This document shows, piece after piece, positions 42,452 to 59,961 of a stretch of DNA of 64,000 nt (positions are counted from its first letter, which is position 1; each line of letters opens with the position of its first letter). The notes beneath the pieces were generated by a model, which searched no databases, was not told where the DNA came from, and worked only from the letters and a program-made list of their open reading frames with translations. The position numbers and the translations under genes were made by a program. The DNA is from a virus, in IMG/VR virus record IMGVR_UViG_3300025141_013434, positions 81,244 through 145,243 of that record; one strand, given 5' to 3'.

Positions 42452-42452
42452 T

Positions 42453-45544: not shown

Positions 45545-46405
45545 TTATTCTCCTTCTGTTTCTTCCACTACTGCGCGGCCTTTAAGATTTTCCCAATCTT
45601 TTTCTGGCCGAACCTGCAAATTTGTTTGCCACGCGCCTTTTATCACGTTTGCTTGAATATCCAAAGATTCTGAAAAGTTAATAAACGCGTTTATATCTTT
45701 TGGAAAACAACTTCCTCCAAAGCCCCATTTACCATCAGGGCCTGGAACATTTAAATGTGAATCTCCGACTCGGCCGTCTGCAGCAAAGCCAGCAAGAGCA
45801 GCGTCCCAATTAACTCCTGCTTTTTCTGAAATTAGTTTCATTTCGTTCGCGAAAGCGACCTTTACTGAGAAAAAGACATTATTAAAATATTTTACGAACT
45901 CTGCTGTAGTACTATCCATCTCCATAATATTACAATGCTTGAATCTGAGTCTATAAAGTTCTGCTACTTTTTGGGTATGTTCTTTTAATCCGCCCAAAAC
46001 AATTCTCGATTGATTCAAGAAGTCATATTTTGCATGCCTCTCTGTTAAAAATTCCGGATTGAAAACAATATTTAGATCTGGGAATTCTTGAGCAAAAGAC
46101 TCGGTGGTACCCGGAATAACCGTAGATTTAATAATCACAATGTTATCTTTTCTTGAGTTTACTCTGCTTATATCTTGTAAAACAGACCTAACAATTCCTA
46201 AACTTATTGAACCGTCCCTGTTCATTGGCGTTGGTACCGAAACGAATACTACGTCTGATCTGTTAACAGTCTCTTCTAGAGAGTTCATGCTTCGGAGTGG
46301 GTCTTTGTCATGCACGAATATTGGCAAGACTGGTACGAAACCAAATCCTATTGCTTGGCCCACAAATCCGTTTCCAACAACTCCTACGGCCTTAATTTCA
46401 CTCAT
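45545..46405 (-). CDS. Short nucleotide-sugar dehydrogenase (UDP-glucose/GDP-mannose dehydrogenase family)
   Basis: Expected to oxidise a UDP-hexose at C6 to the uronate using two NAD+. The N-terminal Rossmann motif GNGFVG, the STVIPGTTE strand, the NPEFLTER loop and the catalytic-cysteine motif GGSCFPKD (C233) are all present. At 286 residues it contains the NAD-binding and central helical domains but lacks the roughly 130-residue C-terminal UDP-binding domain of the usual 400-450-residue enzyme. The ATG at 46405 has GGAG upstream and overlaps the epimerase stop by eight bases. Together with the epimerases it would supply uronic-acid-type sugars. Activity of the short form is not certain. 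Confidence 0.8.
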   Translation of the reverse strand: MSEIKAVGVVGNGFVGQAIGFGFVPVLPIFVHDKDPLRSMNSLEETVNRSDVVFVSVPTPMNRDGSISLGIVRSVLQDISRVNSRKDNIVIIKSTVIPGTTESFAQEFPDLNIVFNPEFLTERHAKYDFLNQSRIVLGGLKEHTQKVAELYRLRFKHCNIMEMDSTTAEFVKYFNNVFFSVKVAFANEMKLISEKAGVNWDAALAGFAADGRVGDSHLNVPGPDGKWGFGGSCFPKDINAFINFSESLDIQANVIKGAWQTNLQVRPEKDWENLKGRAVVEETEGE

Positions 46406-47246
46406 TTGCAAACTCCAAAAAACACTCTTTTATTCCAGTTGTTATATTTATTTTCGGACTCCACCCGAGGGCCTTGAGGGGTTGTATATTGGCCCTCGTC
46501 AGCAAAACATCACCCGGGCGGGGGTCGACATATTCAAAATCCAAATCCGGGGCAGCCTCTAAAACAAGATCTTTCATCTCATTAAGAGATATATTCTTTC
46601 CTGTCCCGACGTCAAAAACTTGGCCATGCAATTTATCGTTCTTTATATTGTCTAAGCAAAAGATGTTAGCGGATACAACATCTTTAACATGAGCCATGTC
46701 TCTCCTTTGTTCTCCATCACCAGTTATGAAAGGAGTTTCTCCGCGTTTGATAAAACTTCTCCAATTAGCAACACAAGTTGCATATGGGCCATCGGCCTTT
46801 TGATCTTTAGAATATACATTGAAATATCGCAAAGAAACTGTCCTAACTCCATAAAGCTCCCAATACAAAACAGTTTCAAGCTCGGCAGCAAACTTCGACA
46901 AAGCATATGGATTCGTCGGGCCATTGCCATTTCCGATCACAGAAGATGAACTAGAATACACGACCATTGCGTCAACATTCTTAGCAAACTCTAGAATAAT
47001 AGAAGTAGTATGTACATTATTGTACATCACTGCTTTCGGATATTTCACACTATAGGCAACTCTGGGAATTGCTGCTAAATGAAAAATTACCTCAGGATCA
47101 AATTCATAATGTTTCAGCCCTATATCTGTTAGTATGTCTTCTTCTTCTTTGAGATCTATACCCATAACTTCGTGACCTAAGTCCTGAAGCTCCTGAAACA
47201 AGTGCGATCCAATGTACCCTTTATGGCCTGTTACCAAAACTCTCAT
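46398..47246 (-). CDS. NAD-dependent sugar epimerase (extended SDR, UDP-glucose/GlcNAc 4-epimerase-like)
   Basis: A 282-residue extended short-chain dehydrogenase. The dinucleotide-binding motif GHKGYIG is at 7-13, a serine-rich catalytic segment (VVYSSSSSV) lies near 95-103, and the catalytic pair is in YALSK (Y114, K118). The substrate-binding half includes LRYFNVY and the DMAHVKDV motif typical of GalE relatives. The family interconverts C4 epimers or forms 4-keto intermediates. It is adjacent to the dehydrogenase at 45545 and overlaps it, so the two probably act on the same nucleotide sugar. Confidence 0.8.
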   Translation of the reverse strand: MRVLVTGHKGYIGSHLFQELQDLGHEVMGIDLKEEEDILTDIGLKHYEFDPEVIFHLAAIPRVAYSVKYPKAVMYNNVHTTSIILEFAKNVDAMVVYSSSSSVIGNGNGPTNPYALSKFAAELETVLYWELYGVRTVSLRYFNVYSKDQKADGPYATCVANWRSFIKRGETPFITGDGEQRRDMAHVKDVVSANIFCLDNIKNDKLHGQVFDVGTGKNISLNEMKDLVLEAAPDLDFEYVDPRPGDVLLTRANIQPLKALGWSPKINITTGIKECFLEFANE

Positions 47247-47935
47247 TCAATATAACCCGCTTCTTTTAGTTCTCGTTCAAATTCTTCGATCTCACTTTCG
47301 TGGCAGAGATTTTTATATTTTTCTAGGTTTTTGCCAATCGAATCCTCTGACAGTTTTCTTTTTCCATAATCTGCACTAGCATCCGCAATACCTAATCGGC
47401 CCTGTACAGACACATTCCAATCATAAACCCAGTCTTCCACATACTTTGGATAATCCGAAAAATTATGATTTTTCTTAATCTTGAAAGCCTTCATGATTCT
47501 TTTTTGAACTTCGTCTGGACTTTTTACCAATTCTTCATAGGATATTTCCACATCAATAATTTCTGAATATTCTTTCCTCTGAGACATAGAAGATATCCAA
47601 CGGCGAGGAGAAACATAATTGCCGTCCGAAAGTACCACGTCGCGGCCGTCCCTTATTACGTTGATAATCCCTATGTTGCTGCTCTTTACCCACTCTGCCT
47701 GTTCCGTGAATTGCGTTTCAGTCGAGCGGGTATTGCTTAATAACGCCGGAGGGAGCCTTTTGCCTATCAAGAACTTTTTGTCACTCTCCTTTTCTACAAG
47801 CTCGTCTATCGTCAACTCGTGTCCGTTGAAGCCCTCTTTATATAGAACTTCAGTGTCTTTGAAGGCGTAACACATCCTTAATAATAAAGTTGTTCCAGTC
47901 TTGGCACACCCTGTAATGAAAATCTTTTTTGTCAT
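47243..47935 (-). CDS. PAPS-dependent sulfotransferase-like protein
   Basis: A 230-residue protein. Residues 9-18 (GCAKTGTTLL) match the 5'-phosphosulfate loop, and VIRDGRDVV (93-101) matches the 3'-phosphate-binding motif of sulfotransferases. It would transfer sulfate from PAPS to a glycan hydroxyl. The start is taken at the ATG 47935, which makes an ATGA overlap with the glycosyltransferase stop; an in-frame GTG lies nine bases further up. No membrane segment is visible, so it acts in the cytoplasm on a precursor. A P-loop kinase is the less likely alternative. Confidence 0.75.
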   Translation of the reverse strand: MTKKIFITGCAKTGTTLLLRMCYAFKDTEVLYKEGFNGHELTIDELVEKESDKKFLIGKRLPPALLSNTRSTETQFTEQAEWVKSSNIGIINVIRDGRDVVLSDGNYVSPRRWISSMSQRKEYSEIIDVEISYEELVKSPDEVQKRIMKAFKIKKNHNFSDYPKYVEDWVYDWNVSVQGRLGIADASADYGKRKLSEDSIGKNLEKYKNLCHESEIEEFERELKEAGYIE

Positions 47936-48549
47936 ATTTTCCACGTCTCGTATTCCGGCTGTTTGGTTTTGTTGTTATTATGCATTCTATATCTGTAAAA
48001 GGGGATCTTTAAGTGGTGGATCCTGTATTTATCGCCCAGGCGTTTTCTTAGCTCTTCTTCTTCTTTATGTCTCATTTTCGGGTTGTAGCCGCCAAGCTTC
48101 TCAAAAAGATCCCTTCTGTACATTATAGCACAAGATATATTGTTTTTATCCGCATACCTTCTTTCTAGCGTGTTTTCGTATTCATCGACCATCAAATAGT
48201 CAGAAGAAACACAAAATGCATCATGATTTGCTTCGAGATAAGTTTTCATAATAAAAGCCATATCCTTGTTGATATAATCATCAGCATCGACGCGGAAAAA
48301 GAATTGCCCCCTACAGTTCTGTATTCCCAGATTCGATGCCACTGCAACACCAGAGTTCTTCTTTGTTTTTAAAATTCTTACTTTGTCAGCGAAGGGCTTT
48401 ATTTTTTCTAGAGAATCGTCTGTGCTACAATCATCAACAAGAATGATTTCTACATTCACGTTTGCCTGAGACAAACAACTTCTCAAACATCTAGGGAGAT
48501 AATCTCCATAATTATAATTCGTAACAATTATCGATACTTCTGGCAACAT
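47932..48549 (-). CDS. Family 2 (GT-A) glycosyltransferase
   Basis: A 205-residue soluble GT-A enzyme: SIIVTNYNYGDYL at the N-terminus, the first acidic site VDDCS (38-42), and the metal-binding VDADD (87-91) after the strand GQFFFR. It has no transmembrane anchor and is short even for this family, leaving little room for acceptor-specific domains. It lies one base after the NeuB-like gene and may transfer the nucleotide sugar made nearby. Confidence 0.85.
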   Translation of the reverse strand: MLPEVSIIVTNYNYGDYLPRCLRSCLSQANVNVEIILVDDCSTDDSLEKIKPFADKVRILKTKKNSGVAVASNLGIQNCRGQFFFRVDADDYINKDMAFIMKTYLEANHDAFCVSSDYLMVDEYENTLERRYADKNNISCAIMYRRDLFEKLGGYNPKMRHKEEEELRKRLGDKYRIHHLKIPFYRYRMHNNNKTKQPEYETWKI

Positions 48550-48550
48550 A

Positions 48551-49252
48551 TTACTTTCTCAAAATGTCCAATTCTTTTGTCAAGTCTCTAAATTGTTTTA
48601 GAGACTTGTTGTCAAAAGAACAAAGATGTGCGCCTTCGAATTTGCTTTGCGCAAAAATATCATTACTAAAGTGCTTTTCCAGAATCTTTGCGCCGCGGTG
48701 ATGGGCTTGCACTGCTGCTGCGATACCTATCGTGTGATCACTATATCCCGTAAAACTACTCTTTTCAAAATCTTTTGGCATCTTTTTCAACTGCTCATCA
48801 TGGAGAAACGTCGGATATTTAGAGACACAAAATAAATATTGAATGTTTTCAAACCCATACGGAAACTCACCCTCTGGCAGCATGCCTGTTGATATAATCG
48901 TTGGAAGGCCTTTTTCCAATATCTTCTTACATAGCCGCGGGTTTGTGGCAGCTGTCCTACTGGCTATCTTGTGGCGCTTAACATAAGTGCCCTCAAGCCA
49001 TTCAAGTCGTTCTTCATCGAATACTGACGCCATAAACTCTACACCAATAAAATCGCAAAAGGAACTAATCTCGTGAAGATCATCATAACTAATATCTCTA
49101 TATTTCCTATCTGTATTTCCAAAGAACTTTTCAGAATCCATCAATTGCACCTTCACAACGTCTGCGCCGGCAGTAAATGCGGAAAGAGCCATCCGCTTTA
49201 ATTCTTTTATGTCTCCGTGGTGCTGATTGCACAAATCAACTATTATTTCCAT
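48551..49252 (-). CDS. neuB: Short NeuB-type nonulosonate (sialic-acid-like) synthase
   Basis: Condenses an N-acyl-mannosamine-type sugar with phosphoenolpyruvate to a nine-carbon 2-keto acid. Family motifs are in order: NQHHGD (9-14), VKVQ (33-36), STGM (121-124), CVSKYP (142-147), GYSDHT (169-174) and the metal/catalytic LEKHF (191-195). It is only 233 residues, compared with about 340 in bacterial NeuB, and lacks the C-terminal SAF (antifreeze-like) domain. The first motif begins VDLCN where the family has AEI-x-N, and KIASRT stands where KI-x-S-x-D is usual. The substrate could therefore be a different aldose. Overlaps the formyltransferase by 17 bases. Confidence 0.78.
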   Translation of the reverse strand: MEIIVDLCNQHHGDIKELKRMALSAFTAGADVVKVQLMDSEKFFGNTDRKYRDISYDDLHEISSFCDFIGVEFMASVFDEERLEWLEGTYVKRHKIASRTAATNPRLCKKILEKGLPTIISTGMLPEGEFPYGFENIQYLFCVSKYPTFLHDEQLKKMPKDFEKSSFTGYSDHTIGIAAAVQAHHRGAKILEKHFSNDIFAQSKFEGAHLCSFDNKSLKQFRDLTKELDILRK

Positions 49253-49946
49253 GTAAAAACTCCGTCAGCACCCTTTTGGTTTTTGCTTTTATTTCTGTCA
49301 TTATTTCACCATTCATGTCTTTAGCTTGGTATAATTTACCACGAGAAGTAAGAGGCTTTGGTTCAATTTTGTTATTTAATATATTATACACGTTTTCTGC
49401 TAAAAGGTCAAACCCTGTTTTACAAGTTTTCATAAAAACATCATCAGGAGAATCGCGCGATGATAATCCCTGTGTCTGTCTCTGTAATATTATGTCGCCG
49501 CCGTCAATCGAATTATCGATATAATGCACTGTCGCGCCTATGGTCTCTGGGCGCTCCTCTTGCAACGCCCAATATGAACTATCAACGCCGCGGTGGTACT
49601 CAACAAGTCCAGTATGTATGTTAATACAGCCCAGACGGGGTATCGAGAATATTTCCCTTTCTAATAAAGGTGCACCGAAGACAAAACATATATCTGGATT
49701 TAATCTTTTAATTTCTTCTATTATTTGTTTTGAATGCAACTCTTTTGGAGCGCAGAATACCGGGCGCATTCTTTCGATCCACCGGGGCCAGCCTTCTCCG
49801 AAATGATTTAATTCTGATTTTCTAAAATCATCTATACCATTCAATTTAGAAACAATTATTGAATTGTTAATCTCTATTTCTTCTCGTAATCTGTTAATGA
49901 AGGCGAGGTGTCTTAAGCAATTTGATGTTATTATGAGCGACTTCAT
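49236..49946 (-). CDS. N10-formyltetrahydrofolate-dependent sugar formyltransferase
   Basis: A 236-residue formyl_trans_N protein. The catalytic triad of the family is visible: N109 and H111 in INIHTGL, and D148 in NSIDGGD. The YHRG turn (117-120) corresponds to the usual LLP-x-x-RG segment. It would N-formylate an amino sugar. The start overlaps the PIG-L deacetylase stop as ATGA. A deacetylase directly followed by a formyltransferase suggests swapping an N-acetyl for an N-formyl group on one sugar. A hydrolase or GART-like enzyme is less likely given the context. Confidence 0.8.
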   Translation of the reverse strand: MKSLIITSNCLRHLAFINRLREEIEINNSIIVSKLNGIDDFRKSELNHFGEGWPRWIERMRPVFCAPKELHSKQIIEEIKRLNPDICFVFGAPLLEREIFSIPRLGCINIHTGLVEYHRGVDSSYWALQEERPETIGATVHYIDNSIDGGDIILQRQTQGLSSRDSPDDVFMKTCKTGFDLLAENVYNILNNKIEPKPLTSRGKLYQAKDMNGEIMTEIKAKTKRVLTEFLHGNNS

Positions 49947-50626
49947 AGTTTTATTGGATTCCTGCCCATTCTTGTAAAGGCTTCTCCCCTATTTGCGTCA
50001 ATAGAATAGCCCCTGATTTTAGTTATACCGTCTATATAACTGCATATATCGTTGAGGATCCCATGTTGCGAGAGGTAAATATCTAGTGCGGCCTTTTTGT
50101 GCATATAGGTTTCTGTTATATCAACTACAATATCTGGATTTGGGTGGGGATCCAATATTTCAAACGACCATAGATCTTTCACTCTGTGGGGCTGACCTAG
50201 TTCTTCTAAAATGTTTTCGTGTGCCTTCCAACATGCTTCTTCTGCCAGGAGAGATGTCCTTTTGTGATCTCTGTGTTTACAAATTTGGTTATGAGTTATT
50301 ACTAAATCCGGCCTTACTTCCCGTATTTTTTGTATAAATTTATGAAAATTTGCTTTCTTATTCGATACCTTTTGGCATTCTAAACCAAAGTTGTGCAGTT
50401 TATATACGCCCAGTGTGGCCGCGGCGTTGTGCGCTTCTTCCATTCTTGTTTCTACGATGTCGCGCGGGATGGTACCTTGTTCCACTCCTGTCGAGCCATC
50501 TGTCACAAAACAGACATGAATTTCAGATCCTTGATTTGACCATTTCTTAATAGTGCCTCCACAACCTATCACCTCATCGTCCTGGTGGGCTGCAAAAACT
50601 AAAACTCTTTTTGGGATATTAATCAT
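49943..50626 (-). CDS. PIG-L (LmbE-like) family N-deacetylase
   Basis: A 227-residue zinc-dependent deacetylase. The signature AHQDDE (13-18, usual AHPDDE) and the second metal motif HRDH (118-121) are present, and a final HG motif follows near 190. Such enzymes remove N-acetyl groups from GlcNAc-type sugars or conjugates. The start is the ATG at 50626, overlapping the NeuA-like gene by eight bases; the TTG at 50644 is less likely. It is positioned between CMP-sugar activation and N-formylation. Confidence 0.82.
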   Translation of the reverse strand: MINIPKRVLVFAAHQDDEVIGCGGTIKKWSNQGSEIHVCFVTDGSTGVEQGTIPRDIVETRMEEAHNAAATLGVYKLHNFGLECQKVSNKKANFHKFIQKIREVRPDLVITHNQICKHRDHKRTSLLAEEACWKAHENILEELGQPHRVKDLWSFEILDPHPNPDIVVDITETYMHKKAALDIYLSQHGILNDICSYIDGITKIRGYSIDANRGEAFTRMGRNPIKL

Positions 50627-51224
50627 GTTTCGTTCTCGATTCAACGAACTTTATATCTTCAATAGTATGCACGTCATGGACGTTACAAACATATGCGCCC
50701 GTCTTTATGCTCAGATCCCTTTGGAACACGTAACCCGACTTCATAATCCTAAAAGCTGCATTTTGCATTAAATTTATATCAACGCTTATCAGTTCATTCC
50801 TATCGTGCTTAATAAATTCGCTAATTGCATCATCTAGAATATTCGAAGTAATCTCTGGAGAGTTTGCCTGAAGAGATACGTATATCTGCGATTCCTGAAA
50901 ATTATCTTCTATATATTCCACTGTCGATCGAATGGCTTCCATTTTAAATATATGATCTTCTGACAGCCTTGGGTCTCTGCGATGTATTTTTGCGCCGTAT
51001 TCCGATGCTACTTTTATTATCTCTTCGTCTTCTGTAGATACCCAGACGTCCGAGATCAACTTACTTTCTTTTGCGGCTTTGATCGACCAAGATAACATTG
51101 GCTTGCCCCATATGGGATGAATATTTTTTCTAAGGAGCCTTTTAGAGCCTCCGCGGGCGGGTATAATTGCCGTTATTTTAGGAGCCTTATTGTGTGCAGC
51201 TATAACATCTGCAAGGCCAGTCAT
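50619..51224 (-). CDS. neuA: CMP-nonulosonate cytidylyltransferase (NeuA-like)
   Basis: Activates a 2-keto sugar acid with CTP. The nucleotide-binding motif IIPARGGSKRLLRKN lies at 20-34, VSTEDEE follows near 62-68, and LQANSPE (118-124) takes the place of LQPTSPL. Length (201 residues) is close to the minimal cytidylyltransferase domain (about 220), with no esterase domain. The start at ATG 51224 is set by GGAGG five bases upstream (51230-51234); two further in-frame ATGs at 51239 and 51236 lack such a site. With the NeuB-like and WecB-like genes it completes a CMP-nonulosonic acid route. KdsB-type activation is the alternative. Confidence 0.82.
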   Translation of the reverse strand: MTGLADVIAAHNKAPKITAIIPARGGSKRLLRKNIHPIWGKPMLSWSIKAAKESKLISDVWVSTEDEEIIKVASEYGAKIHRRDPRLSEDHIFKMEAIRSTVEYIEDNFQESQIYVSLQANSPEITSNILDDAISEFIKHDRNELISVDINLMQNAAFRIMKSGYVFQRDLSIKTGAYVCNVHDVHTIEDIKFVESRTKHD

Positions 51225-51229
51225 CAAGC

Positions 51230-51234
51230 CCTCC
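51230..51234 (-). promoter_or_regulatory. Shine-Dalgarno site selecting the third in-frame ATG of the NeuA-like gene
   Basis: GGAGG on the minus strand lies five bases before ATG 51224. It sits between two earlier in-frame ATGs (51239, 51236) and the chosen start, which makes the downstream start the best supported. It directly follows the stop codon of the FkbM/dioxygenase gene. Confidence 0.65.
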
Positions 51235-51235
51235 A

Positions 51236-53251
51236 TCATGGATTAGCTTGCAAAAAGCTAAAAAAGGCATATTTGGGACTTACACACGCAACGCTGGAGA
51301 ACGATATGTTTCTTCTTTCTTTGAAAATTGCCCTAGAGCCTGAATGCAATGCACAAGAATCAAAAAAGATAACATCTCCTGCCTTTCCAGTGCAGACAAG
51401 CAAATCATACTTTGAATCTCCGACTGTTACTGTCTTTTTTCTGTCGACTGGTAGCAACTCGTTGGGTGCACTATCCGGAGAGACGTATCCACAATGTGAT
51501 TTCGGCTTCTTTAGAGAATGTTTAGGCCAAGTGCGAGCTTCACCGTTCTTTGTTGGCCAGTTTGATTCATCGCCATACTTACTAAAACCAGTAAAAGAAA
51601 ACCTATCATGCAAGTGTTGTTTGTCATACTTCTTCTTCGCCCTGTGTGAACCTAGAGCGAAAAGCAGAGGAGCTGTAAACTCATCAACATCCTCCAAGAG
51701 AACCATCGCCTTAAGTCTGGTCACAGAAACATCGCGGTGCCAGCCATTGTGATTTATCGGAGATGGATATATCCATTCCGTGTTGCTCCTCCAATCATTA
51801 CGGGCAGGAACATTTTCATAGCCCGCGAATATGGCTTCAAAGATCGGATTTTTTGTGAGCTTCTCAACACCAGGGGGATGATTGTTGTTAAATATCTTCG
51901 ACTGCATTCTTAGCTGACCATCGTTTGGAAGAGAGGGGGTGTTCCAAAAAGCATCGGGCTTGACGGGGCCCAATATCTCTCTCCAATTGTCAACAAAAAT
52001 TTCCCACCGCTTGGGCCCAATTGCGAATTCTTGTATAACTCTCGAATTAACATATCCCGATATATACTCCCTGGGGTGGAGCTTATCTTTTATCATGTCT
52101 TGAAAGTCTTTTATTTCTTCTAATTCTTCTTCTGAAAAAAGCTTTTCTACTTTTACTATTCCGTTTTTAAACAATTCTCTCACATGCGGCCTAGCTTCTT
52201 CCGGGCAGGAAGAGGACTTTAAGTATTTTTCTTGCTCTTTGTCAAAGAAATTATACATATCAACGAAAAAATCCTTATCTTCTCGCATATTATCACCGAC
52301 AAGGGTCAACTCAGAGAAATCGAATTCTCCTGTATAACGAGATTGCATTTGCTTTTTTATAGAAACATCAGAATTCCAGTCAAGATCTTTTACTGCAGAA
52401 TACGCTCTTTCGGCGATAGACCTTGCCAAATCTTTTCCCTGTGCTGTTTTTTGCACATTTGTCTTAAAAAACCAAAAATCTAAACAATTAGTTTGAAGAG
52501 TTGCTCGGGTTCCTGGTAACTTTATGTTGTGACCTCTTGGCGAACATATGACTTTAAATCCATTTTGCTCGAACCTCTCTACGATTTTATTGGTTTTCGC
52601 GACGGCGGCTTCAGAGGACATATTCAAAACTTCACGAAGATATTGTAGATGAAATTCTCCGGTTAATTTTTTACAATTATTTAAAATAAACTCAAAACTT
52701 TCCTCGTTGTCAAAAATGGAATATTCCGACCCCTCTACATCTATCTTCATAAAATCAATATTAGTGATGTTATTCTCTCTCACTAAATCCATAAAGGAGA
52801 TTGTTTCCACATAATCCCGATTGCTCCTTAGGAGCGAATCGTCTGACGATTCGCGCTCGTCCACAGCGATACAATTTACGGTCCCCCATCTTTTGCCACC
52901 TGTTATGTTTGTATCTATCTTAATGAACTCACCAGTATTATCGCCGGTAATAGCACGGCAAATTGGGAAAAAATTCTCTCTTCCTAATACTCGATTCCAG
53001 TCCTTTAAGGCTGATTCTAGAATTTCAGAATTTGAATTTGAAGCCTCTATTGCATAGCATTTTACATTTTCGACGTCGAGGCACATTGAAGTAAAATCTC
53101 CCTTAGACGCGCCGAGGTCGACAACTACGTCACCTTCTTTAATTTTGAAATATTTGAAATATCCATTTTGCCACCCACTTTTTAATAACTTGGGGATCTG
53201 AAAGTCTTTTAGAGATTTTGTTTCTTTGTTTTGTTTTTCTTTGCTTGTCAT
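51236..53251 (-). CDS. Fusion of an FkbM-type methyltransferase and a PhyH-like Fe(II)/2-oxoglutarate dioxygenase
   Basis: A 671-residue two-domain enzyme. The N-terminal half has SAM motif I (DLGASKGDF, 45-53) and the FkbM signature KIDVEGSEYSIF (169-180), indicating an O-methyltransferase. The C-terminal half (about 360-670) has the HxD facial-triad motif in WHRDVS (H505, D507) and the distal H636 with R640 in ALHSGSR, as in phytanoyl-CoA dioxygenases. It could hydroxylate and then methylate one sugar. A helical linker (270-350) joins the halves. AGAGGA sits six bases before the ATG. Both catalytic sets look intact. Confidence 0.8.
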   Translation of the reverse strand: MTSKEKQNKETKSLKDFQIPKLLKSGWQNGYFKYFKIKEGDVVVDLGASKGDFTSMCLDVENVKCYAIEASNSNSEILESALKDWNRVLGRENFFPICRAITGDNTGEFIKIDTNITGGKRWGTVNCIAVDERESSDDSLLRSNRDYVETISFMDLVRENNITNIDFMKIDVEGSEYSIFDNEESFEFILNNCKKLTGEFHLQYLREVLNMSSEAAVAKTNKIVERFEQNGFKVICSPRGHNIKLPGTRATLQTNCLDFWFFKTNVQKTAQGKDLARSIAERAYSAVKDLDWNSDVSIKKQMQSRYTGEFDFSELTLVGDNMREDKDFFVDMYNFFDKEQEKYLKSSSCPEEARPHVRELFKNGIVKVEKLFSEEELEEIKDFQDMIKDKLHPREYISGYVNSRVIQEFAIGPKRWEIFVDNWREILGPVKPDAFWNTPSLPNDGQLRMQSKIFNNNHPPGVEKLTKNPIFEAIFAGYENVPARNDWRSNTEWIYPSPINHNGWHRDVSVTRLKAMVLLEDVDEFTAPLLFALGSHRAKKKYDKQHLHDRFSFTGFSKYGDESNWPTKNGEARTWPKHSLKKPKSHCGYVSPDSAPNELLPVDRKKTVTVGDSKYDLLVCTGKAGDVIFFDSCALHSGSRAIFKERRNISFSSVACVSPKYAFFSFLQANP
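52823..52854. repeat. Pair of adjacent palindromes inside the FkbM domain
   Basis: GCTCC-TTA-GGAGC (52823-52835) is followed directly by a 21-base inverted repeat with two perfect 10-base arms around one central base (GCGAATCGTC at 52834-52843, GACGATTCGC at 52845-52854). It encodes residues 132-143, a Ser/Asp/Arg-rich stretch between the SAM motif and the FkbM signature, probably a surface loop. It could form two stacked hairpins in RNA or DNA. Confidence 0.6.
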
Positions 53252-53272
53252 CGATGTTCCTCTTTTATAGCC

Positions 53273-54295
53273 TTATATTAGCATATCCAAGATCCTTTTG
53301 CAAGATTCTTTATGATCAAAAAGGTGATTCTGTCTCGCCCTCTTGAATTCTTCTGTAAGATCCGCGGACGTCAAATAAGTAGCGGCTGCTTGAAGTTGCC
53401 CCGGAGTGAAGTCTGTTTTCAGTTGGATGCAATAATCATAATCATATAGATAATCATGCGTCACTCTAAATCTTTTTTTATTCCCGTTTCTCACGCTCGG
53501 CTTGATATCAAAATTTATAAGCGGAACATTATGCATTACGCACTCTTCTACAGTGGTTGATCCAAAGTTAATGACAAGCTTAGAGACCTCTAAAAGTTCC
53601 TGTGTGGTGTGAGGAAACCAAGATCGATCTTCTAAATGACGGCCCCCGCTCTTCTTCAACATCTCTTTATACTTTCTTGGAATCGGATCTTTGCCTCTGG
53701 TTTTTGCTAATACCCGGAATCCTGACTTTAACAAAAGTTTTAACAACCTTTCCATATTAACTCTACCCAAATCTCTGTTTTTTGGCCAAATTAAAAGAAC
53801 GTTGTTTGTATCTTGTAGTTTATTGTTTTTGAGAGCTTCAGCCTCAGTGAAAGAAACATCGTATTTCGGAATACCGAGATAGAGGTTATTCCCTTCGGTG
53901 CAGCTGTAGTATTTTGCACAAAACTCACTGGGCATAAGGATGTAATCTGCCACTTCTTTATAAAAGTTGTTATAACTTTCTACAAAATCTGTCTGATAAG
54001 TGCACACAACTTTTTTTGTACTAGGAATCTTTTTTAAGATCTCAATTCCCCATCTGTTTTCGCTGGAAAATAAAACGCCAGTACATTTTTTAACCTCTCC
54101 GATCGACCTAATTTCAATATTGTGCTTTTTCGCTAAATCTTTTATTTTGTCCCTGTAGAGAAATGGACAATTATATTTTTGCGAAGGTGCAATATAGAAA
54201 ACAGACTTTAACCCCCTGCTGTTACCCTCTAGCACGAGAGGCATCCAGTATCTAAGGTGGGTCATTTCCCTGAGAACAAATCCAACCTCACTCAC
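53273..54295 (-). CDS. GT-B-fold glycosyl/glycerophosphotransferase-like protein
   Basis: A 340-residue protein with two Rossmann-like halves. The C-terminal signature INFGSTTVEECVMHNVPLIN (242-261) resembles the donor-binding loop of CDP-glycerol phosphotransferases and UDP-GlcNAc epimerase-fold enzymes. YLGIPKYDV (139-147) matches the interdomain G-x-P-x-x-D turn. The donor cannot be named. The start is GTG at 54295, with AAAGG seven bases upstream, overlapping the previous gene by eight bases. No membrane segment is visible. Confidence 0.55.
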   Translation of the reverse strand: MSEVGFVLREMTHLRYWMPLVLEGNSRGLKSVFYIAPSQKYNCPFLYRDKIKDLAKKHNIEIRSIGEVKKCTGVLFSSENRWGIEILKKIPSTKKVVCTYQTDFVESYNNFYKEVADYILMPSEFCAKYYSCTEGNNLYLGIPKYDVSFTEAEALKNNKLQDTNNVLLIWPKNRDLGRVNMERLLKLLLKSGFRVLAKTRGKDPIPRKYKEMLKKSGGRHLEDRSWFPHTTQELLEVSKLVINFGSTTVEECVMHNVPLINFDIKPSVRNGNKKRFRVTHDYLYDYDYCIQLKTDFTPGQLQAAATYLTSADLTEEFKRARQNHLFDHKESCKRILDMLI

Positions 54296-55205
54296 TCTTT
54301 AACCTTTCTAGGAACTCTTGAATCAACCTGTCGAAGGCCTTTCGGTCGACGTCTTTCAAGTATCCCTCTTCTAAATAATATTTTATCAGATCATCGCCAA
54401 ACAATGAGGAAAACCTCTTACACATCTCGACGTGATCGGGCTTTGCCTTCCATTTATTTAAAAAAGAGGCGTCTTCTTTTCTAATATAATTATATTCGCC
54501 GGGACCCAAGCATGGACCATGACGGTGGCAATATAAGACCTCCTCGAATCTTTCGCCGCGAACATGTACTTTTTTTCTTATCACCTTTTCAGTCCCACAA
54601 GTACTGCACTTATTTAGAATTTTCAAATCCTTATTTTTCACAACAGGAATATCTAAACACCTAAATATCCTACCTAATTCAGAATCAATATCATTAAAAA
54701 AGTGTTCAAAACTTATTATATGATCTGTTTCTGGCCTGAACGTTTGAGCTAGTTCGAAAAGTGAGGACATAAACGTAGTTTTAAACCACTCGAAGACGAT
54801 ATCGTCGGAAACTGTTTTACCATACCTTCTTTCTCCGTATTCTTTCCATTTCTTTATCCAAGTATAATAAAAAGAAACAGGATTTCTAAAGATATACAAT
54901 ATAGAAATATCTGGGTGGAAAGTCCTATGATAATTTATCATCTTAAGCGGCGGCTTATTTAAAACAAGCCACTCGCAATTGTTTATATCTTTTGCTGGTA
55001 AGAGTTGCTCTTTTACAATCTTTTTCGGGACCAAGCCTCGCGACAACATTTTCTTTAGGTCGCCCTTTGTTGTTCCACCTTGAGACCTAAATGATAATTC
55101 CTTCAAAGCAGCTATAGATGGGTGGCCATGTATCTTGTGTAAAACAAAGTGTGACCCGATGCCGCCGCTGGCTGTTATTAGTGCAGAAAACTTAAATTTA
55201 CTCAT
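54288..55205 (-). CDS. Sulfotransferase-like protein with a four-cysteine zinc insertion
   Basis: A 305-residue protein. ASGGIGSHFVL (12-22) is in the place of the 5'-phosphosulfate loop, although it lacks the usual K/R-T-G-T pattern. ISILYIFRNPVSFYYTWIKK (100-119) matches the 3'-phosphate motif RNP-x(2)-S followed by aromatic residues. Residues 200-232 add C-x2-C...C-x5-C (C200, C203, C226, C232), a probable zinc knuckle not part of the family core. The start overlaps the upstream glycosyltransferase as ATGA. It probably sulfates the same glycan as the 47243 product. A nucleotide-binding enzyme of another kind cannot be excluded. Confidence 0.6.
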   Translation of the reverse strand: MSKFKFSALITASGGIGSHFVLHKIHGHPSIAALKELSFRSQGGTTKGDLKKMLSRGLVPKKIVKEQLLPAKDINNCEWLVLNKPPLKMINYHRTFHPDISILYIFRNPVSFYYTWIKKWKEYGERRYGKTVSDDIVFEWFKTTFMSSLFELAQTFRPETDHIISFEHFFNDIDSELGRIFRCLDIPVVKNKDLKILNKCSTCGTEKVIRKKVHVRGERFEEVLYCHRHGPCLGPGEYNYIRKEDASFLNKWKAKPDHVEMCKRFSSLFGDDLIKYYLEEGYLKDVDRKAFDRLIQEFLERLKSE

Positions 55206-56107
55206 TTAGTTAAATCCTTTTCAAATAAATTAAAATATTGATTAAGGCAAGACTCCCAGTCTGTTGGTTGCATCTTATTTTGTTTGTATTTTTTCGAAGT
55301 AATTATTGATAATAATTCTTCTGTATCTTTAAAAACCATATCTTCCCCTGCAAACTCGATACAACCTCCTCCTTCGGTGTACACGTAGGTTGGTATTTTA
55401 CAAGCCAAGCTTTCTAATATGTGGTTCGGGCCAGGATCGAATCGTGACGCGCTAATATATAAATCATATTTTCCTAATTCTCTCCCCAGTTCTTCTCCGA
55501 AAAGTGGCGGTATAACTTTGGTGTTTTTGAAGGTTCCCATTTCCCGGCCAATATAAGTAAAAGTAAAGTCTTCGTTTTCACCTACAAAATTGTCTATCTC
55601 GTTGTAAAAATCAAAACCTTTCATAAAATTATCCGACCAGTGATGGGTTACAATATTGACTTTGCCATTATTAATTTTTTCTCGTTTTTGAAATATCTCC
55701 AAATCTGCACCGTTATAAATGGTTGAATAGTTTTTGCATTTCCATCCCTTTATTGAATGGTAGTTTTGCATCCAGTTAGACACAAACACAGTATGATCTA
55801 ACCACTCGCTACAAGACAACAGAAAAACATCCATAAAGTCTGTATTTTTCCTAGCATCACATTCATTTATCCTTTGTACAAGTTTTGTATTCTTATGAAA
55901 CTTACGATAATGAATCGCCTCATTAATCCCTATTCCAACTTTTGCACTTGGTCGAGGATCTTGTAAAAATATTAAATCTATATTATCCTCAAAAACATTT
56001 GTTATCTTATGGCCCCTTTTTGTACCGATTTCATAAAAAGCTTTAACAAACTTATTCCCTCCTCCCCAGGGGCCATTCACTATTTGCCTATTGATTAATA
56101 TCTTCAT
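55202..56107 (-). CDS. Family 4 (GT-B) glycosyltransferase
   Basis: A 301-residue retaining glycosyltransferase of the GT4 type. The N-terminal glycine loop GPWGGGNKF (12-20), the hinge VFVSNWM followed by STIYNGADLEIF (128-139), and the donor-site motif SRFDPGPNHILES (221-233) with its conserved Glu are present. It is shorter than typical GT4 enzymes (350-400) mainly in the N-terminal domain. No membrane anchor is seen. It is expected to add one sugar to the growing glycan in the cytoplasm. Confidence 0.82.
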   Translation of the reverse strand: MKILINRQIVNGPWGGGNKFVKAFYEIGTKRGHKITNVFEDNIDLIFLQDPRPSAKVGIGINEAIHYRKFHKNTKLVQRINECDARKNTDFMDVFLLSCSEWLDHTVFVSNWMQNYHSIKGWKCKNYSTIYNGADLEIFQKREKINNGKVNIVTHHWSDNFMKGFDFYNEIDNFVGENEDFTFTYIGREMGTFKNTKVIPPLFGEELGRELGKYDLYISASRFDPGPNHILESLACKIPTYVYTEGGGCIEFAGEDMVFKDTEELLSIITSKKYKQNKMQPTDWESCLNQYFNLFEKDLTK

Positions 56108-56118
56108 GGACGTGCCTG

Positions 56119-57060
56119 TTAATAAACTGGGGTGCCATTAGTGTTTGGTGGATTTTTTGGCTTTATCCAACTGCCTTGAGAATCGACTGGCAAATTCCAA
56201 CCCAAAGCCTCCGAGACATCTTCTATAGACACTGGAATTTTATTGTTTTTGTGCTTTTCCAATAATTCTTGATAATCGTGAATCTTGTAATATTTTACTT
56301 TCTTATCATCACCGGGTGGGGCCCAATAATCACCGTATCTGGTCATTCCTCTGATTCTTGCGTTCTCTCCCTTTTCATTGAAGATACCAACCGAAACGGG
56401 AATTACCGGGGCGCTATAAAAGACAGTCATTGAATTTTCTCTCAATAATCTTTCTGCTTTTTTCAACATCTTTGTCTCGGAGTCTTCACCGCCTTCGTGG
56501 GACAGGTTGTCTATATCCCAAGGATAAATTAAGTCTAACATTTTCTTTGTAACCATACAGTTCATTGCGCCCATTACGGGATTTCGATTATAGTGATACA
56601 GGAATTTAAAATCACTACTACCCAGGGCATTTGAGTATGTGCCGGCACGATTTCTCACTCTTCTTTGTGCATCGAAAGAGATACACCCAGTAGTGTCTTC
56701 GTAGTTTTCAAAAAAATCAACATATTCTTTTAACCAGCCACCTTTGATGATAAATTGAAAATCTGCGGGGATGGGCGCTACATACTTCCCTGTTGCATTT
56801 TCTACTACGATGTTTAATGCCTTTGCATACTCATTCGAAGGGTTTCTCTCTTTTTGTCTAAAAACCTTAAATCCCCTTTTATCAAGATTCTCTAGATATT
56901 CCTCTGTACCCTCTTCTGTCGAGGCGTTATCAACAACTATTATTTCCTTTTCTGGATAATCTTCTGTACAAATTAAAAAAGATTCTAAACAACTTCTCAA
57001 ATAGTGAAGTCGATTACAGTTTATGAAACCAAAAGTAACTTTGGGTAATTTATTTTTCAT
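56119..57060 (-). CDS. Family 2 glycosyltransferase with altered metal site
   Basis: A 313-residue GT-A protein: TFGFINCNRLHYL at the N-terminus, VVDNAS (42-47) as first acidic motif, and a later EDSETKML-type helix near 200. The metal-binding D-x-D is replaced by PADFQ (98-102), leaving a single Asp. An extra C-terminal segment (250-313) ends in a Pro/Asn-rich tail. The single Asp may still suffice, as in some GT2 enzymes, or the protein may have lost metal dependence. Overlaps the methyltransferase by 11 bases. Confidence 0.75.
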   Translation of the reverse strand: MKNKLPKVTFGFINCNRLHYLRSCLESFLICTEDYPEKEIIVVDNASTEEGTEEYLENLDKRGFKVFRQKERNPSNEYAKALNIVVENATGKYVAPIPADFQFIIKGGWLKEYVDFFENYEDTTGCISFDAQRRVRNRAGTYSNALGSSDFKFLYHYNRNPVMGAMNCMVTKKMLDLIYPWDIDNLSHEGGEDSETKMLKKAERLLRENSMTVFYSAPVIPVSVGIFNEKGENARIRGMTRYGDYWAPPGDDKKVKYYKIHDYQELLEKHKNNKIPVSIEDVSEALGWNLPVDSQGSWIKPKNPPNTNGTPVY

Positions 57061-57907
57061 GATCTTCTATAACCTTTTCTGTTTTTTCTATGTTATGAGT
57101 TAGGTCTAGGCCCTTTTCAAGTGCGTCCGAACCAGAAAACGCAAAGACCACCTTATTATTTACTTGTTCTTTTCTCACTTGAGAGAGCAAGTCCGCAAAC
57201 ATGGTTTCAGTTTCTTCTGCGGTCTGGTTGGGCGGAACTTCAAGCAACATTACATGATCTTCCCGGTATAAGAGGGCCGGAGTGTGATGTGGAAACACCC
57301 TTTTGTCTAACTTCCATCCAGGGTTATTTTCAACGAACTCATCTACTGCAGTCTTTACCCCCCGCTTTTTCCCCTGAGTGTCTTTTGGTTTAGCCAAAAG
57401 ATGCAAGTGTTCCTCGTATCCATCTACTTCTGAAAAGTATTCATCATCTTCTGCCCAGCGGCCGTCGTAATCATCTATGACCATCAGACCTGTTTTCGCC
57501 AACTGGTTTGAAAGAATTTCCAATTCTTTGGATACTGTATAATAATTGTGATCACCATCCAAAAAGACAACATCCCAATATCCCCATTCCTTGTAGGACT
57601 CGTCAGCATCTAATATTACTTGAAATTTCTCTAAAAAATCTAAACTATTGTTTCTTAGCATCATCACTGTTTGTTTCTCTGAGTCGAGGTCACCGGTCAG
57701 GTTGGCTAGTATGATTCCAAGGGTTTCATCCTGCATGACGTCGACCCCCGTGAGTTGGAAATTTTCTCTATTCTTCATAAGGTGGGCGACGAGAGGTATA
57801 AAAGTTTGACCTTTATGTACGCCAATTTCTAAAATTTTTGGAGTTATCTCTTGACCAAACCCAGAGAGGTAACCTCTTATAAATCCTAAATATCCCCAAT
57901 AAGCCAT
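57050..57907 (-). CDS. Class I SAM-dependent methyltransferase
   Basis: A 285-residue protein. SAM motif I is ILEIGVHKGQT (25-35), and the acidic strand with the metal-type site is WDVVFLDGDHNYY (111-123), followed by VIDDYD (about 147-152). This resembles macrocin-O-methyltransferase and Methyltransf_24 enzymes that methylate sugar hydroxyls. The C-terminal 80 residues are helical, acidic and without homology that I recognise. One base separates it from the WecB-like gene. Confidence 0.75.
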   Translation of the reverse strand: MAYWGYLGFIRGYLSGFGQEITPKILEIGVHKGQTFIPLVAHLMKNRENFQLTGVDVMQDETLGIILANLTGDLDSEKQTVMMLRNNSLDFLEKFQVILDADESYKEWGYWDVVFLDGDHNYYTVSKELEILSNQLAKTGLMVIDDYDGRWAEDDEYFSEVDGYEEHLHLLAKPKDTQGKKRGVKTAVDEFVENNPGWKLDKRVFPHHTPALLYREDHVMLLEVPPNQTAEETETMFADLLSQVRKEQVNNKVVFAFSGSDALEKGLDLTHNIEKTEKVIEDHEK

Positions 57908-57908
57908 C

Positions 57909-58982
57909 TTAAATTATCTCCTTTATTATTCTTGAAATTCTCTTTCCGGATTTGCCGTCCCACAGTTCTGGCTTCTCGAACGGTGGCAGATTCTTTGCTT
58001 TTATCATGTTCAAAGAGGATACAACCTCACTTTTCGAATCTACCAACCGGTTGCTTCCTGCATGAATTGTTGAGGGTCTTTCCGTATTTTTTCTAAGTGT
58101 CAAGCATGGAATACCCAAAGCTGTAGTTTCTTCCTGAATGCCCCCTGAATCAGTGAGTACTGCAGCACTGTTTTTCATCAATGCAGAAAACTCAAAATAA
58201 CCAACAGGATCTATCACTTCTAGTTTTTCTATAGAGTTAAGATCATTAAGTAAACCAAAATTTGCAAAACTATTTCTCGTTCTAGGATGTATGGGGAAAA
58301 TCATTTTAGTACTTACCGATTTACAAATATCCAGTATTTTATTTAATCCCTCAAGATTGTCAACATTGGAGGGTCGATGTAAAGTAACCAAAATATAATC
58401 CTCATCCGCGGGTGAGTCTTCTATCAACGGAAGAACATTATAAAGAGAATCTATCATAGTATTACCCACAAAAAAGATAGAATCTTGACTAGCGCCCTCA
58501 TTCAAAAGATTTTTAACAGCTGAGTTTTCTGTCACAAAGTGAAAATCAGATATTCTATCTACAATTATGCGATTTGTTTCTTCTGGCATTGACCTGTCAA
58601 AACTTCTGAGGCCAGCTTCTATGTGAGCAATTGGAATTCCCATCTTTGTTGCTGCAATAGCAGCGCCGAGAGTTGAGTTGACATCACCATAAACTACCAC
58701 AAGATCGACCCTCTTGCCTGTGAGATATCTTTCTATACCAGTAATGACATCTGCTACTTGCTTTCCTTGCATTCTTGAAGATGCAATCTTTAAGTTTATA
58801 TCTGGCTTTGGAATCTTCAAAGCTTTGAAAAAAATATCAGATAAATTTGCATCATAGTGTTGCCCAGTGTGTATAACAATCTGCTTTAAATCTTTTATTT
58901 CTTCCTTTAGAGCGTTAATGACTGGTGCGGCCTTAACAAAGTTGGGCCTTGCACCAACTACATGTACAATATTTTTAGTCAT
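57909..58982 (-). CDS. wecB: UDP-N-acetylglucosamine 2-epimerase (WecB/NeuC family)
   Basis: Full-length (357 residues) GT-B-fold epimerase. Diagnostic motifs are all present: GARPNFVKAAP (10-20), HTGQHYD (38-44), GDVNST (99-104), HIEAGLRSFDRSMPEE (120-135), IHPRTR (231-236) and DSGGIQEE (278-285). The closest pattern is the non-hydrolysing WecB/MnaA group, giving UDP-ManNAc; the hydrolysing NeuC/LegG group gives free ManNAc for NeuB. Because a NeuB-like gene is in the same operon, the hydrolysing role must be considered. The start overlaps the second formyltransferase by eight bases. Confidence 0.88.
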   Translation of the reverse strand: MTKNIVHVVGARPNFVKAAPVINALKEEIKDLKQIVIHTGQHYDANLSDIFFKALKIPKPDINLKIASSRMQGKQVADVITGIERYLTGKRVDLVVVYGDVNSTLGAAIAATKMGIPIAHIEAGLRSFDRSMPEETNRIIVDRISDFHFVTENSAVKNLLNEGASQDSIFFVGNTMIDSLYNVLPLIEDSPADEDYILVTLHRPSNVDNLEGLNKILDICKSVSTKMIFPIHPRTRNSFANFGLLNDLNSIEKLEVIDPVGYFEFSALMKNSAAVLTDSGGIQEETTALGIPCLTLRKNTERPSTIHAGSNRLVDSKSEVVSSLNMIKAKNLPPFEKPELWDGKSGKRISRIIKEII

Positions 58983-59961
58983 TTATAAGATTATCTCCTG
59001 TCTTTATTCCGGCCAATTGGGCCCAATGGTCGGCCCACAACTCGTTCCCATTTTCATCTGAAAGTCTTGTTATTTCTATACAATCGCCATCACTCACTAT
59101 TACCGAAAGGCCTGCACAATTGTTCTGACGATTGTTGATACAGACGACATTTCCAACTTTATAAGGAAAATAACCATACTTTCTTCTCAGGTTCCATATG
59201 GTTATTTTTCCATATTTTGTTTCTAAAAATGCGCCTGGATAAGGATGAGTCAGAGCCCGGGTGAAATCACAAATCTTCTTAACTGGCCAATTTAAATCTA
59301 TCTTACCATCCTCTGGAGTTCTTTTATAATATCTTGTTGCTTTTGAGTTATCTTGTGGGGCTATTGTTTCCTTGCTTTCTGCTATCTTTGGTATAGTTCT
59401 CTCCAGCATGGTCAGGGCTGTCTTGTCTACCTTGAGATAGGCAGTTCGAATATCATCCCTCTCTTCTATAATAAAGGGTTCAAAGTCTAACACGCCGCCA
59501 GTATCCGTCTTTTCTTCCATAATAAAAAGACTATTTCCCCACTCAACGGACTCTTGGTTGCTTTCTATTATCTTCCAGTTTATTACTGCTGCGCCGCGGC
59601 CGATAGGAAGAGGAGATGGGTGAATTCCTATGCAATATTTTTCAGGAACATTCAAAAGGTCTTTTTTAAAAATCTGTGACCAACCACATTGTACAATAAC
59701 TTCCGGGTTTCTTCTGGAAATCCAATCAACAGTCTTTTTATTATTAATGTTATCAGTCCAGAAAACGTTATAGGGGTTTTCTTTGTAAAATTCTGCCATG
59801 CAATCGTAGTTTGATTTAGTAGTGCCCAGGGATGGTTTTAAATTAACGACGCCAACAAGATCAGATATTTCATCCAAAAGAGACACTACTTTTCTGGCCA
59901 GGGGAGTACAGCCGACAACAAGAGTTCTTAAGTTTGAGACTCTAACATTTTCATTGCCCAT
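58975..59961 (-). CDS. Second sugar N-formyltransferase, with C-terminal formyl_trans_C-like domain
   Basis: A 328-residue protein. The core motif IGIHPSPLPIGRG (111-123) and KTDTGG (D153) identify the formyltransferase fold. The usual catalytic Asn two residues before H114 is Gly, a variation that I recall from some sugar formyltransferases. From about 210 a C-terminal domain follows with DGKIDLNWPVKKI and RALTHPYPGAF, the classical second-domain signature. It would N-formylate an amino sugar with N10-formyl-THF. It overlaps the SGNH gene by 34 bases, the longest glycan-operon overlap. Confidence 0.8.
   Translation of the reverse strand: MGNENVRVSNLRTLVVGCTPLARKVVSLLDEISDLVGVVNLKPSLGTTKSNYDCMAEFYKENPYNVFWTDNINNKKTVDWISRRNPEVIVQCGWSQIFKKDLLNVPEKYCIGIHPSPLPIGRGAAVINWKIIESNQESVEWGNSLFIMEEKTDTGGVLDFEPFIIEERDDIRTAYLKVDKTALTMLERTIPKIAESKETIAPQDNSKATRYYKRTPEDGKIDLNWPVKKICDFTRALTHPYPGAFLETKYGKITIWNLRRKYGYFPYKVGNVVCINNRQNNCAGLSVIVSDGDCIEITRLSDENGNELWADHWAQLAGIKTGDNLIND

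What the first reader, a model, noticed from the sequence alone, without database searches (positions are those of the whole stretch)
48551..58982. Phage operon carrying a WecB-NeuB-NeuA trio for a CMP-nonulosonic acid
The three enzymes that convert UDP-GlcNAc to a CMP-activated sialic-acid-like sugar are all recognisable by motif (57909-58982, 48551-49252, 50619-51224). They sit in one co-oriented operon of a T4-type phage genome. The PIG-L deacetylase and a formyltransferase lie between the NeuA-like and NeuB-like genes, suggesting an N-formylated nonulosonate. This could mask the infected cell, block superinfection, or decorate virion fibres. It is the best candidate for a new biological system in this window.
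Basis: partly seen in the sequence, partly recalled or inferred. Interest (0 to 1): 0.8.

Follow-up and report, generated by a model that had tools for sequence, protein, structure and literature searches.

The report
Phage cassette for unusual sugar acid
A marine T4-like virus of bacteria carries a surface-sugar cassette built around stripped-down relatives of the two sialic-acid enzymes NeuB and NeuA; they probably make an activated acidic sugar that is not ordinary sialic acid, and the same core recurs in every related virus examined.

Summary

WecB is the non-hydrolysing type, which makes UDP-ManNAc rather than free ManNAc, and its family is found on only 5 of 26 related phage records. The constant core is a GT-B-fold protein ("X"), NeuA, NeuB and a GT2 glycosyltransferase (26/26). 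PIG-L and formyltransferase form an optional pair (15/26).

The NeuB is a bare TIM barrel (233 aa). Mn/PEP-site residues are intact, but the SAF domain with Arg314 is absent and Glu134 is replaced in 23/23 phage copies. The NeuA lacks the ~40-residue dimerisation arm that binds sialic acid, and its second metal aspartate (Asp211) is His in 22/22 phage and 6/6 bacterial relatives, against Asp in 28/28 canonical ones. Both form their own clades with rare bacterial relatives in polysaccharide loci. One Pelagibacteraceae genome fuses the GT2 to the short NeuA.

Best reading: a phage surface-glycan module making and transferring a CMP-activated 3-deoxy-ulosonate of unknown structure, optionally N-formylated.

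The parts
53273..54295 (-). X: GT-B-fold protein, constant partner; NDP-sugar hydrolase/epimerase-like or glycosyltransferase (unresolved)
   Evidence: 26/26 related phage records; AF2 model pLDDT 82, Foldseek hits are mixed GT-B enzymes including UDP-GlcNAc 2-epimerase, NeuC and MurG; only weak Pfam hits
51236..53251 (-). FkbM methyltransferase fused to PhyH-type dioxygenase; optional tailoring
   Evidence: PF05050 and PF05721; PhyH homologue inside the module in 2/26 records
50619..51239 (-). Short NeuA-like cytidylyltransferase, no dimerisation arm, DxH in place of DxD
   Evidence: PF02348 E 1e-24; column analysis; own clade, SH-aLRT 100
49943..50644 (-). PIG-L family N-deacetylase (AHQDDE and HRDH metal motifs kept)
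   Evidence: PF02585 E 7e-28; 15/26 records, always together with FT1
49236..49946 (-). FT1: sugar N-formyltransferase-like (NIH...D motifs)
   Evidence: PF00551; best NCBIfam hits are a sugar formyltransferase and ArnA, below cutoff
48551..49252 (-). Short NeuB-like PEP-type synthase, TIM barrel only, no SAF domain
   Evidence: PF03102 E 1e-33; AF2 pLDDT 94; Foldseek top 14 are NeuB/PseI/SpsE/DAHP synthases; residues
47932..48549 (-). GT2a: family 2 glycosyltransferase, constant partner
   Evidence: PF00535 E 2e-30; 26/26 records; fused to short NeuA in L135:7476-8714
47243..47944 (-). Sulfotransferase-like
   Evidence: PF13469; 12/26 records
46398..47246 (-). NAD-dependent sugar-nucleotide epimerase/dehydratase
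   Evidence: PF01370 E 7e-42; 20/26 records
45545..46411 (-). Minimal UDP-sugar dehydrogenase without the C-terminal domain; GGSCFPKD kept
   Evidence: PF03721 and PF00984 only; 22/26 records
57909..58982 (-). WecB-type non-hydrolysing UDP-GlcNAc 2-epimerase; same gene string, optional, probably a separate UDP-ManNAc branch
   Evidence: TIGR00236 303.6 bits, cutoff 210; NeuC 86.7, cutoff 236; PF02350 on 5/26 records
58975..59961 (-). FT2: second formyltransferase with C-terminal domain, ArnA-like, next to WecB
   Evidence: PF00551 and PF02911

Best explanation
A surface-glycan module, resident in T4-like marine phages, makes and transfers a CMP-activated 3-deoxy-ulosonic acid that is not one of the known nonulosonates. 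Proposed order: an amino-sugar aldose is supplied by the host or by the GT-B protein X acting as a sugar-nucleotide hydrolase (inferred). The short NeuB condenses it with PEP (inferred from the intact Mn/PEP residues). The short NeuA activates the product with CTP (inferred from the intact CTP motif). GT2a, or X, transfers it to a glycan (inferred from 26/26 linkage and a GT2a-NeuA fusion). In about half of the phages PIG-L removes an N-acetyl group and FT1 replaces it with N-formyl (inferred from pairing). WecB is an accessory branch. The glycan most likely goes on the infected cell's surface or on the virion; the data do not say which. Shown here: gene content, linkage, folds, residue changes, phylogeny. 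Not shown: any reaction or product.
For: Core X-NeuA-NeuB-GT2a in 26 of 26 phage records; a separate NeuA-based scan returned 14 loci, all on contigs that also hold NeuB. Short NeuB is a confident TIM barrel whose 14 best PDB matches are all PEP-condensing NeuB/PseI/SpsE/DAHP synthases. Nm positions K53, Q55, K129, S154, Y186, S213, H215, E234, H236 are kept in 23/23 phage copies; E134 is lost in 23/23 and the SAF domain is missing. Short NeuA keeps the ARGGSK..KN motif, Q104 and D209 but lacks the arm and has D211 as H in 28/28. Short NeuB (100) and short NeuA (100) are each separate clades. A Pelagibacteraceae locus holds the short pair plus a canonical NeuA/NeuB pair 5 kb away, arguing for a different product. 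GT2a-NeuA fusion in L135. Bacterial copies sit in polysaccharide loci.
Against: In N. meningitidis NeuB the R314A mutant is inactive (PMC6795526), and in NmCSS D211A lowers kcat 15,000-fold and R165A is inactive (PMC2901514), so these proteins might not do the parental reactions at all. No substrate, product or transfer is shown. Known CMP-ulosonate transferases are not GT2 (own knowledge). The fusion is a single case. The role of X is unresolved.
Confidence: 0.55

Rival explanations
1. One reading: WecB, NeuB and NeuA turn UDP-GlcNAc into an ordinary CMP-nonulosonate (Neu5Ac, Leg or Pse type), then PIG-L and FT1 N-formylate it.
For: Family-level matches. NeuB scores best against TIGR03569 and NeuA against PseF. 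WecB also opens the short NeuA-NeuB-GT2a clusters of two Anaerolineales genomes.
Against: WecB is non-hydrolysing and its family is absent from 21/26 records. No NeuC/PseG-type enzyme was identified by family search in the window. All NulO equivalog cutoffs are missed by a wide margin. Sugar-recognition elements are lost in both enzymes.
Confidence: 0.15
2. The short NeuB and NeuA are repurposed scaffolds with other chemistry: a non-condensing aldolase/lyase or epimerase and a nucleotidyltransferase for a non-ulosonate substrate.
For: E134 and, in one clade, E25 are changed; metal D211 is His in the whole family; new invariant residues appear in NeuA (K99, R104, E149, QNAAFR).
Against: The complete PEP/Mn set is kept over two deep phage clades and ten bacterial sequences apart from S132 and G156, which vary in bacteria; the two proteins stay paired in all phages and most bacteria.
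Confidence: 0.25
3. Host contamination or a mis-binned polysaccharide locus, not a phage cassette.
For: Similar clusters exist in bacterial genomes.
Against: The cassette abuts the late sigma and baseplate genes in the window, and the gp55-like gene lies within the ~8-10 kb fetched on each side in 17/26 independent records. Cassette G+C is 38.6% against 43.4% for the structural genes, while Pelagibacteraceae loci are 22-26%.
Confidence: 0.02

Closest known systems
Nonulosonic acid pathway (NeuC/NeuB/NeuA, LegG/I/F, PseG/I/F)
   Same: NeuB-superfamily synthase with Mn/PEP residues next to a CTP-dependent NeuA-superfamily cytidylyltransferase
   Different: No hydrolysing epimerase identified; NeuB lacks SAF/Arg314 and Glu134; NeuA lacks the dimerisation arm and has DxH; separate clades; constant GT2a and X partners
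LPS/O-chain gene islands of T4-like marine phages (pelagimyophages, PMC7029224)
   Same: Glycosyltransferases and sugar enzymes incl. UDP-glucose 6-dehydrogenase near the tail region; proposed surface change against co-infection
   Different: That paper does not mention sialic acid genes in its main text; here a conserved NeuA-NeuB-GT2-X core is defined. Host GC suggests another host
Complete marine viral genome encoding Gmd, WcaG, ManC, NeuA, KdsA, WaaG (PMC5332604)
   Same: Virus with ulosonate-type cytidylyltransferase and a PEP-condensing synthase
   Different: KdsA (Kdo8P synthase) instead of a short NeuB; relation of that NeuA to the short family not tested
Leptospira borgpetersenii NeuB-like 6ncs
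   Same: Best structural match (TM 0.86); 290-residue chain, shorter than the ~350 of SAF-bearing NeuB
   Different: 29% identity; not examined for the short-family residues

Membership tests
NeuB/PseI/LegI nonulosonate synthase | TIM barrel with Mn ligands His215/His236 and PEP-site Lys53, Gln55, Lys129, Ser154, Ser213 | tested here: met
   23/23 phage copies; fold
NeuB/PseI/LegI nonulosonate synthase | C-terminal SAF domain carrying Arg314 | tested here: not met
   233 aa, ends after the barrel; relatives 226-251 aa
NeuB/PseI/LegI nonulosonate synthase | Three glutamates Glu25, Glu134, Glu234 | tested here: not met
   Glu234 kept; Glu134 lost in 23/23; Glu25 is Asp in 11/23 incl. the window
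NeuB/PseI/LegI nonulosonate synthase | Equivalog score above NCBIfam cutoff | tested here: not met
   TIGR03569 108 vs 400; TIGR03586 88 vs 340
CMP-NulO synthetase (NeuA/PseF) | CTP-binding ARGGSK..KN motif | tested here: met
   R29 in 20/22 (K in 2), S32, K38, N39 in 22/22 phage copies
CMP-NulO synthetase (NeuA/PseF) | Metal aspartates Asp209 and Asp211 | tested here: not met
   Asp209 kept, Asp211 is His in 22/22 phage and 6/6 bacterial short forms; Asp in 28/28 canonical
CMP-NulO synthetase (NeuA/PseF) | Domain-swapped dimerisation arm with Arg165/Gln166 | tested here: not met
   ~40 columns absent; the arm's R.Q motif is invariant in 28/28 canonical proteins
KdsB (CMP-Kdo synthetase) | Scores best with, and above cutoff of, KdsB models | tested here: not met
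   68 bits vs cutoff 193; PseF 112 bits is higher
NeuC/LegG hydrolysing 2-epimerase | Above TIGR03568 cutoff | tested here: not met
   86.7 vs 235.9 bits
WecB non-hydrolysing 2-epimerase | Above TIGR00236 cutoff, nearest solved structures non-hydrolysing | tested here: met
   303.6 vs 210; best PDB match 4neq, E 8.5e-86
Nonulosonate pathway | CMP-nonulosonate detected | not testable with these tools
   needs biochemistry or LC-MS

The most novel reading that the evidence does not exclude
The SAF-less NeuB and arm-less DxH NeuA are a co-evolved enzyme pair for a new class of CMP-activated ulosonic acid, with a dedicated GT2 transferase that uses a CMP-sugar (a donor type not known for GT2), kept mainly by marine T4-like phages to remodel the infected cell surface or virion.
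Probability: 0.3. Interest if true: 0.7.

Novelty: new variant of a known kind. Interest (0 to 1): 0.5.

Why it matters
If right, it adds a branch to the NeuB/NeuA superfamilies in which both enzymes lost the domains thought essential for recognising sialic acids yet stay together across 26 phage records and several bacterial phyla. That gives a concrete, easily expressed two-gene target for finding a new acidic sugar, and a way to test whether marine phages coat their hosts or themselves with sugars of their own making. It also warns against naming such genes neuA/neuB and inferring phage sialic acid from annotation.

Tried and rejected
WecB as the first step of the NeuB pathway: rejected on model scores and distribution. 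Product assignment to Neu5Ac, Leg or Pse: not possible from sequence; all cutoffs missed. Role of X: fold search gives generic GT-B hits (UGTs, MurG, WecB, NeuC), Pfam hits to Glyphos_transf are sub-threshold, so transferase versus hydrolase stays open. T4 late promoter TATAAATA: 7 matches, 3.9 expected, none on the coding strand of the cassette, so no timing evidence. Pelagibacter as host: relatives of the pair occur in 7/297 Pelagibacteraceae, but their loci are 22-26% GC against 42% for the window; host left open. Phage collection search with NeuB gave only a Moritella contig with canonical genes. L123 'short' NeuB is cut by the locus end, not truly short, and was not counted in the bacterial short group.
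Full report
WHAT IS THERE. The window is the last 64 kb of a 145,243-base virus record. Primase- and RuvC-like genes, T4-type baseplate wedge genes and a gp55-like late sigma show a T4-like myovirus; the nearest full-length baseplate matches are about 31% identical, so no close named relative is held. From 63997 down to 45545 runs a string of co-oriented, mostly overlapping genes for sugar chemistry: carbamoyltransferase, SDR epimerases, FkbM methyltransferases, GDSL hydrolase, two formyltransferases, a WecB, sulfotransferase-like proteins, glycosyltransferases, a PhyH dioxygenase, X, NeuA, PIG-L, FT1, NeuB, GT2a and a minimal UDP-sugar dehydrogenase.

WECB IS NOT PART OF A TRIO. It scores 304 bits against the non-hydrolysing WecB model (cutoff 210) and 87 against NeuC (cutoff 236), its best solved relative is a non-hydrolysing enzyme, and it has the HIEAGLRSFDRSMPEE signature. 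By established biochemistry that enzyme gives UDP-ManNAc, whereas NeuB enzymes use a free aldose. A search of 26 whole related records found any Epimerase_2 protein on only 5, although several lacking it exceed 160 kb. Some records are fragments, so absence is not proof for each one. In favour of some link, two Anaerolineales clusters start with a WecB of the same subtype.

THE CONSTANT CORE. Scans of viral contigs with NeuB and NeuA profiles gave 26 distinct records. X, NeuA, NeuB and GT2a are near one another in all 26; the UDP-sugar dehydrogenase in 22, the epimerase in 20, PIG-L with FT1 in 15 (FT1 alone once, PIG-L alone never) and WecB in 5. Several records are near-duplicates, so the number of independent lineages is about 21. 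PIG-L/FT1 stand before NeuB in one phage clade and after it in the other, which suggests the pair is functionally coupled to the core rather than merely inherited in place. The NeuA scan, made independently, returned 14 loci, all on contigs that also carry NeuB.

SHORT NEUB. An AlphaFold2 model (33-row alignment, pLDDT 94) is a complete eight-strand barrel. Against N. meningitidis numbering, K53, Q55, K129, S132, S154, Y186, S213, H215, E234 and H236 are kept in all 23 phage sequences; E134 is T, L, M, V or G; E25 is Asp in one phage clade (including the window) and Glu in the other. The protein ends after the barrel, so the SAF domain and Arg314 are missing. Published work shows R314A is inactive (PMC6795526) and describes three glutamates and two histidines as catalytic (PMC7591256). 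Hence the PEP/metal half of the site is intact and the acceptor half is rebuilt.

SHORT NEUA. Compared with 28 canonical NeuA/PseF from bacteria, the 22 phage and 6 bacterial short forms keep the CTP motif, Gln104 and Asp209, but lack about 40 columns that hold the invariant R.Q of the dimerisation arm, and have His in place of Asp211 without exception. In NmCSS D211A costs 15,000-fold in kcat, R165A is inactive and the arm binds the sugar carboxylate (PMC2901514); the arm is the 39-residue specificity element in V. cholerae CMAS (PMC6580227). New invariant residues (K99, R104, E149, QNAAFR, Q173, LS) presumably form another sugar pocket (inference). Both enzymes thus lost their sialic-acid recognition parts together.

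ORIGIN. Short NeuB forms one clade of 23 phage and 10 bacterial sequences (SH-aLRT 100) and short NeuA another (100), each by a long branch from canonical enzymes. Of 10 bacterial genomes with short NeuB, 8 have a short NeuA; two others have an SpsF-like cytidylyltransferase instead. The family is rare in cells: 7/297 Pelagibacteraceae, 1/350 in the Chloroflexota sample, 1/385 in the sample of the Pelagibacteraceae genome's class. Bacterial copies lie in polysaccharide loci, often beside a GT-B protein of another family in the place of X. One Pelagibacteraceae locus has the short pair and a canonical pair 5 kb apart. Another has GT2a and short NeuA fused in one 412-residue frame, followed directly by short NeuB, a Rosetta-stone link between activation and transfer, though a single case.

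MECHANISM AND LIMITS. The best-supported chain is aldose + PEP (NeuB), CTP activation (NeuA), transfer by GT2a or X, with optional N-acetyl to N-formyl exchange. Every chemical step is inferred. X has a GT-B fold but cannot be called hydrolase or transferase. Where the sugar goes (cell surface, superinfection block, virion) cannot be decided; marine T4-like phages are known to carry LPS-type islands for which surface change is proposed (PMC7029224), and a virus with NeuA and KdsA has been described (PMC5332604). So a phage with ulosonate genes is not new in kind; the stripped enzyme pair with its fixed partners is the new variant. A literature search for SAF-lacking NeuB found nothing relevant in the open library, which is weak evidence of novelty.

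Noticed in passing
L135:7476-8714 (+): Pelagibacteraceae gene fusing the GT2a glycosyltransferase to the short NeuA (412 aa), overlapping a short NeuB downstream.
   Followed up: partly
L127:6529-8474 and 12620-14414: One Pelagibacteraceae polysaccharide locus carries both the short GT2a-NeuA-NeuB set and a canonical-length NeuA/NeuB pair.
   Followed up: partly
L137, L138, L139, L140: In other Pelagibacteraceae the short NeuA (DIH motif) is followed by a GT-B gene (FISDVGFGHMVRQ...) and a different NeuB-like protein of about 320 aa: a third architecture.
   Followed up: no
45545-46411: UDP-sugar dehydrogenase of only 288 aa, with shortened N-terminal domain and no C-terminal domain; conserved in 22/26 related phages.
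   Followed up: partly
51236-53251: FkbM methyltransferase fused to a PhyH-type dioxygenase; the dioxygenase part stands alone between NeuA and NeuB in two other phages.
   Followed up: partly
40985-43718: Two adjacent genes with similar N-termini but different peptidase ends (M23 and M74), probably tail-tip lysins.
   Followed up: no
14856-26729: A single 3957-aa reading frame among the tail genes, function not examined.
   Followed up: no
L049:4624-8717 and L053:5232-8696: Balneolaceae/Flavobacteriales loci pair short NeuB with an SpsF-like cytidylyltransferase, a GT-B protein and, in L053, a 2-hydroxyacid dehydrogenase-like gene.
   Followed up: no
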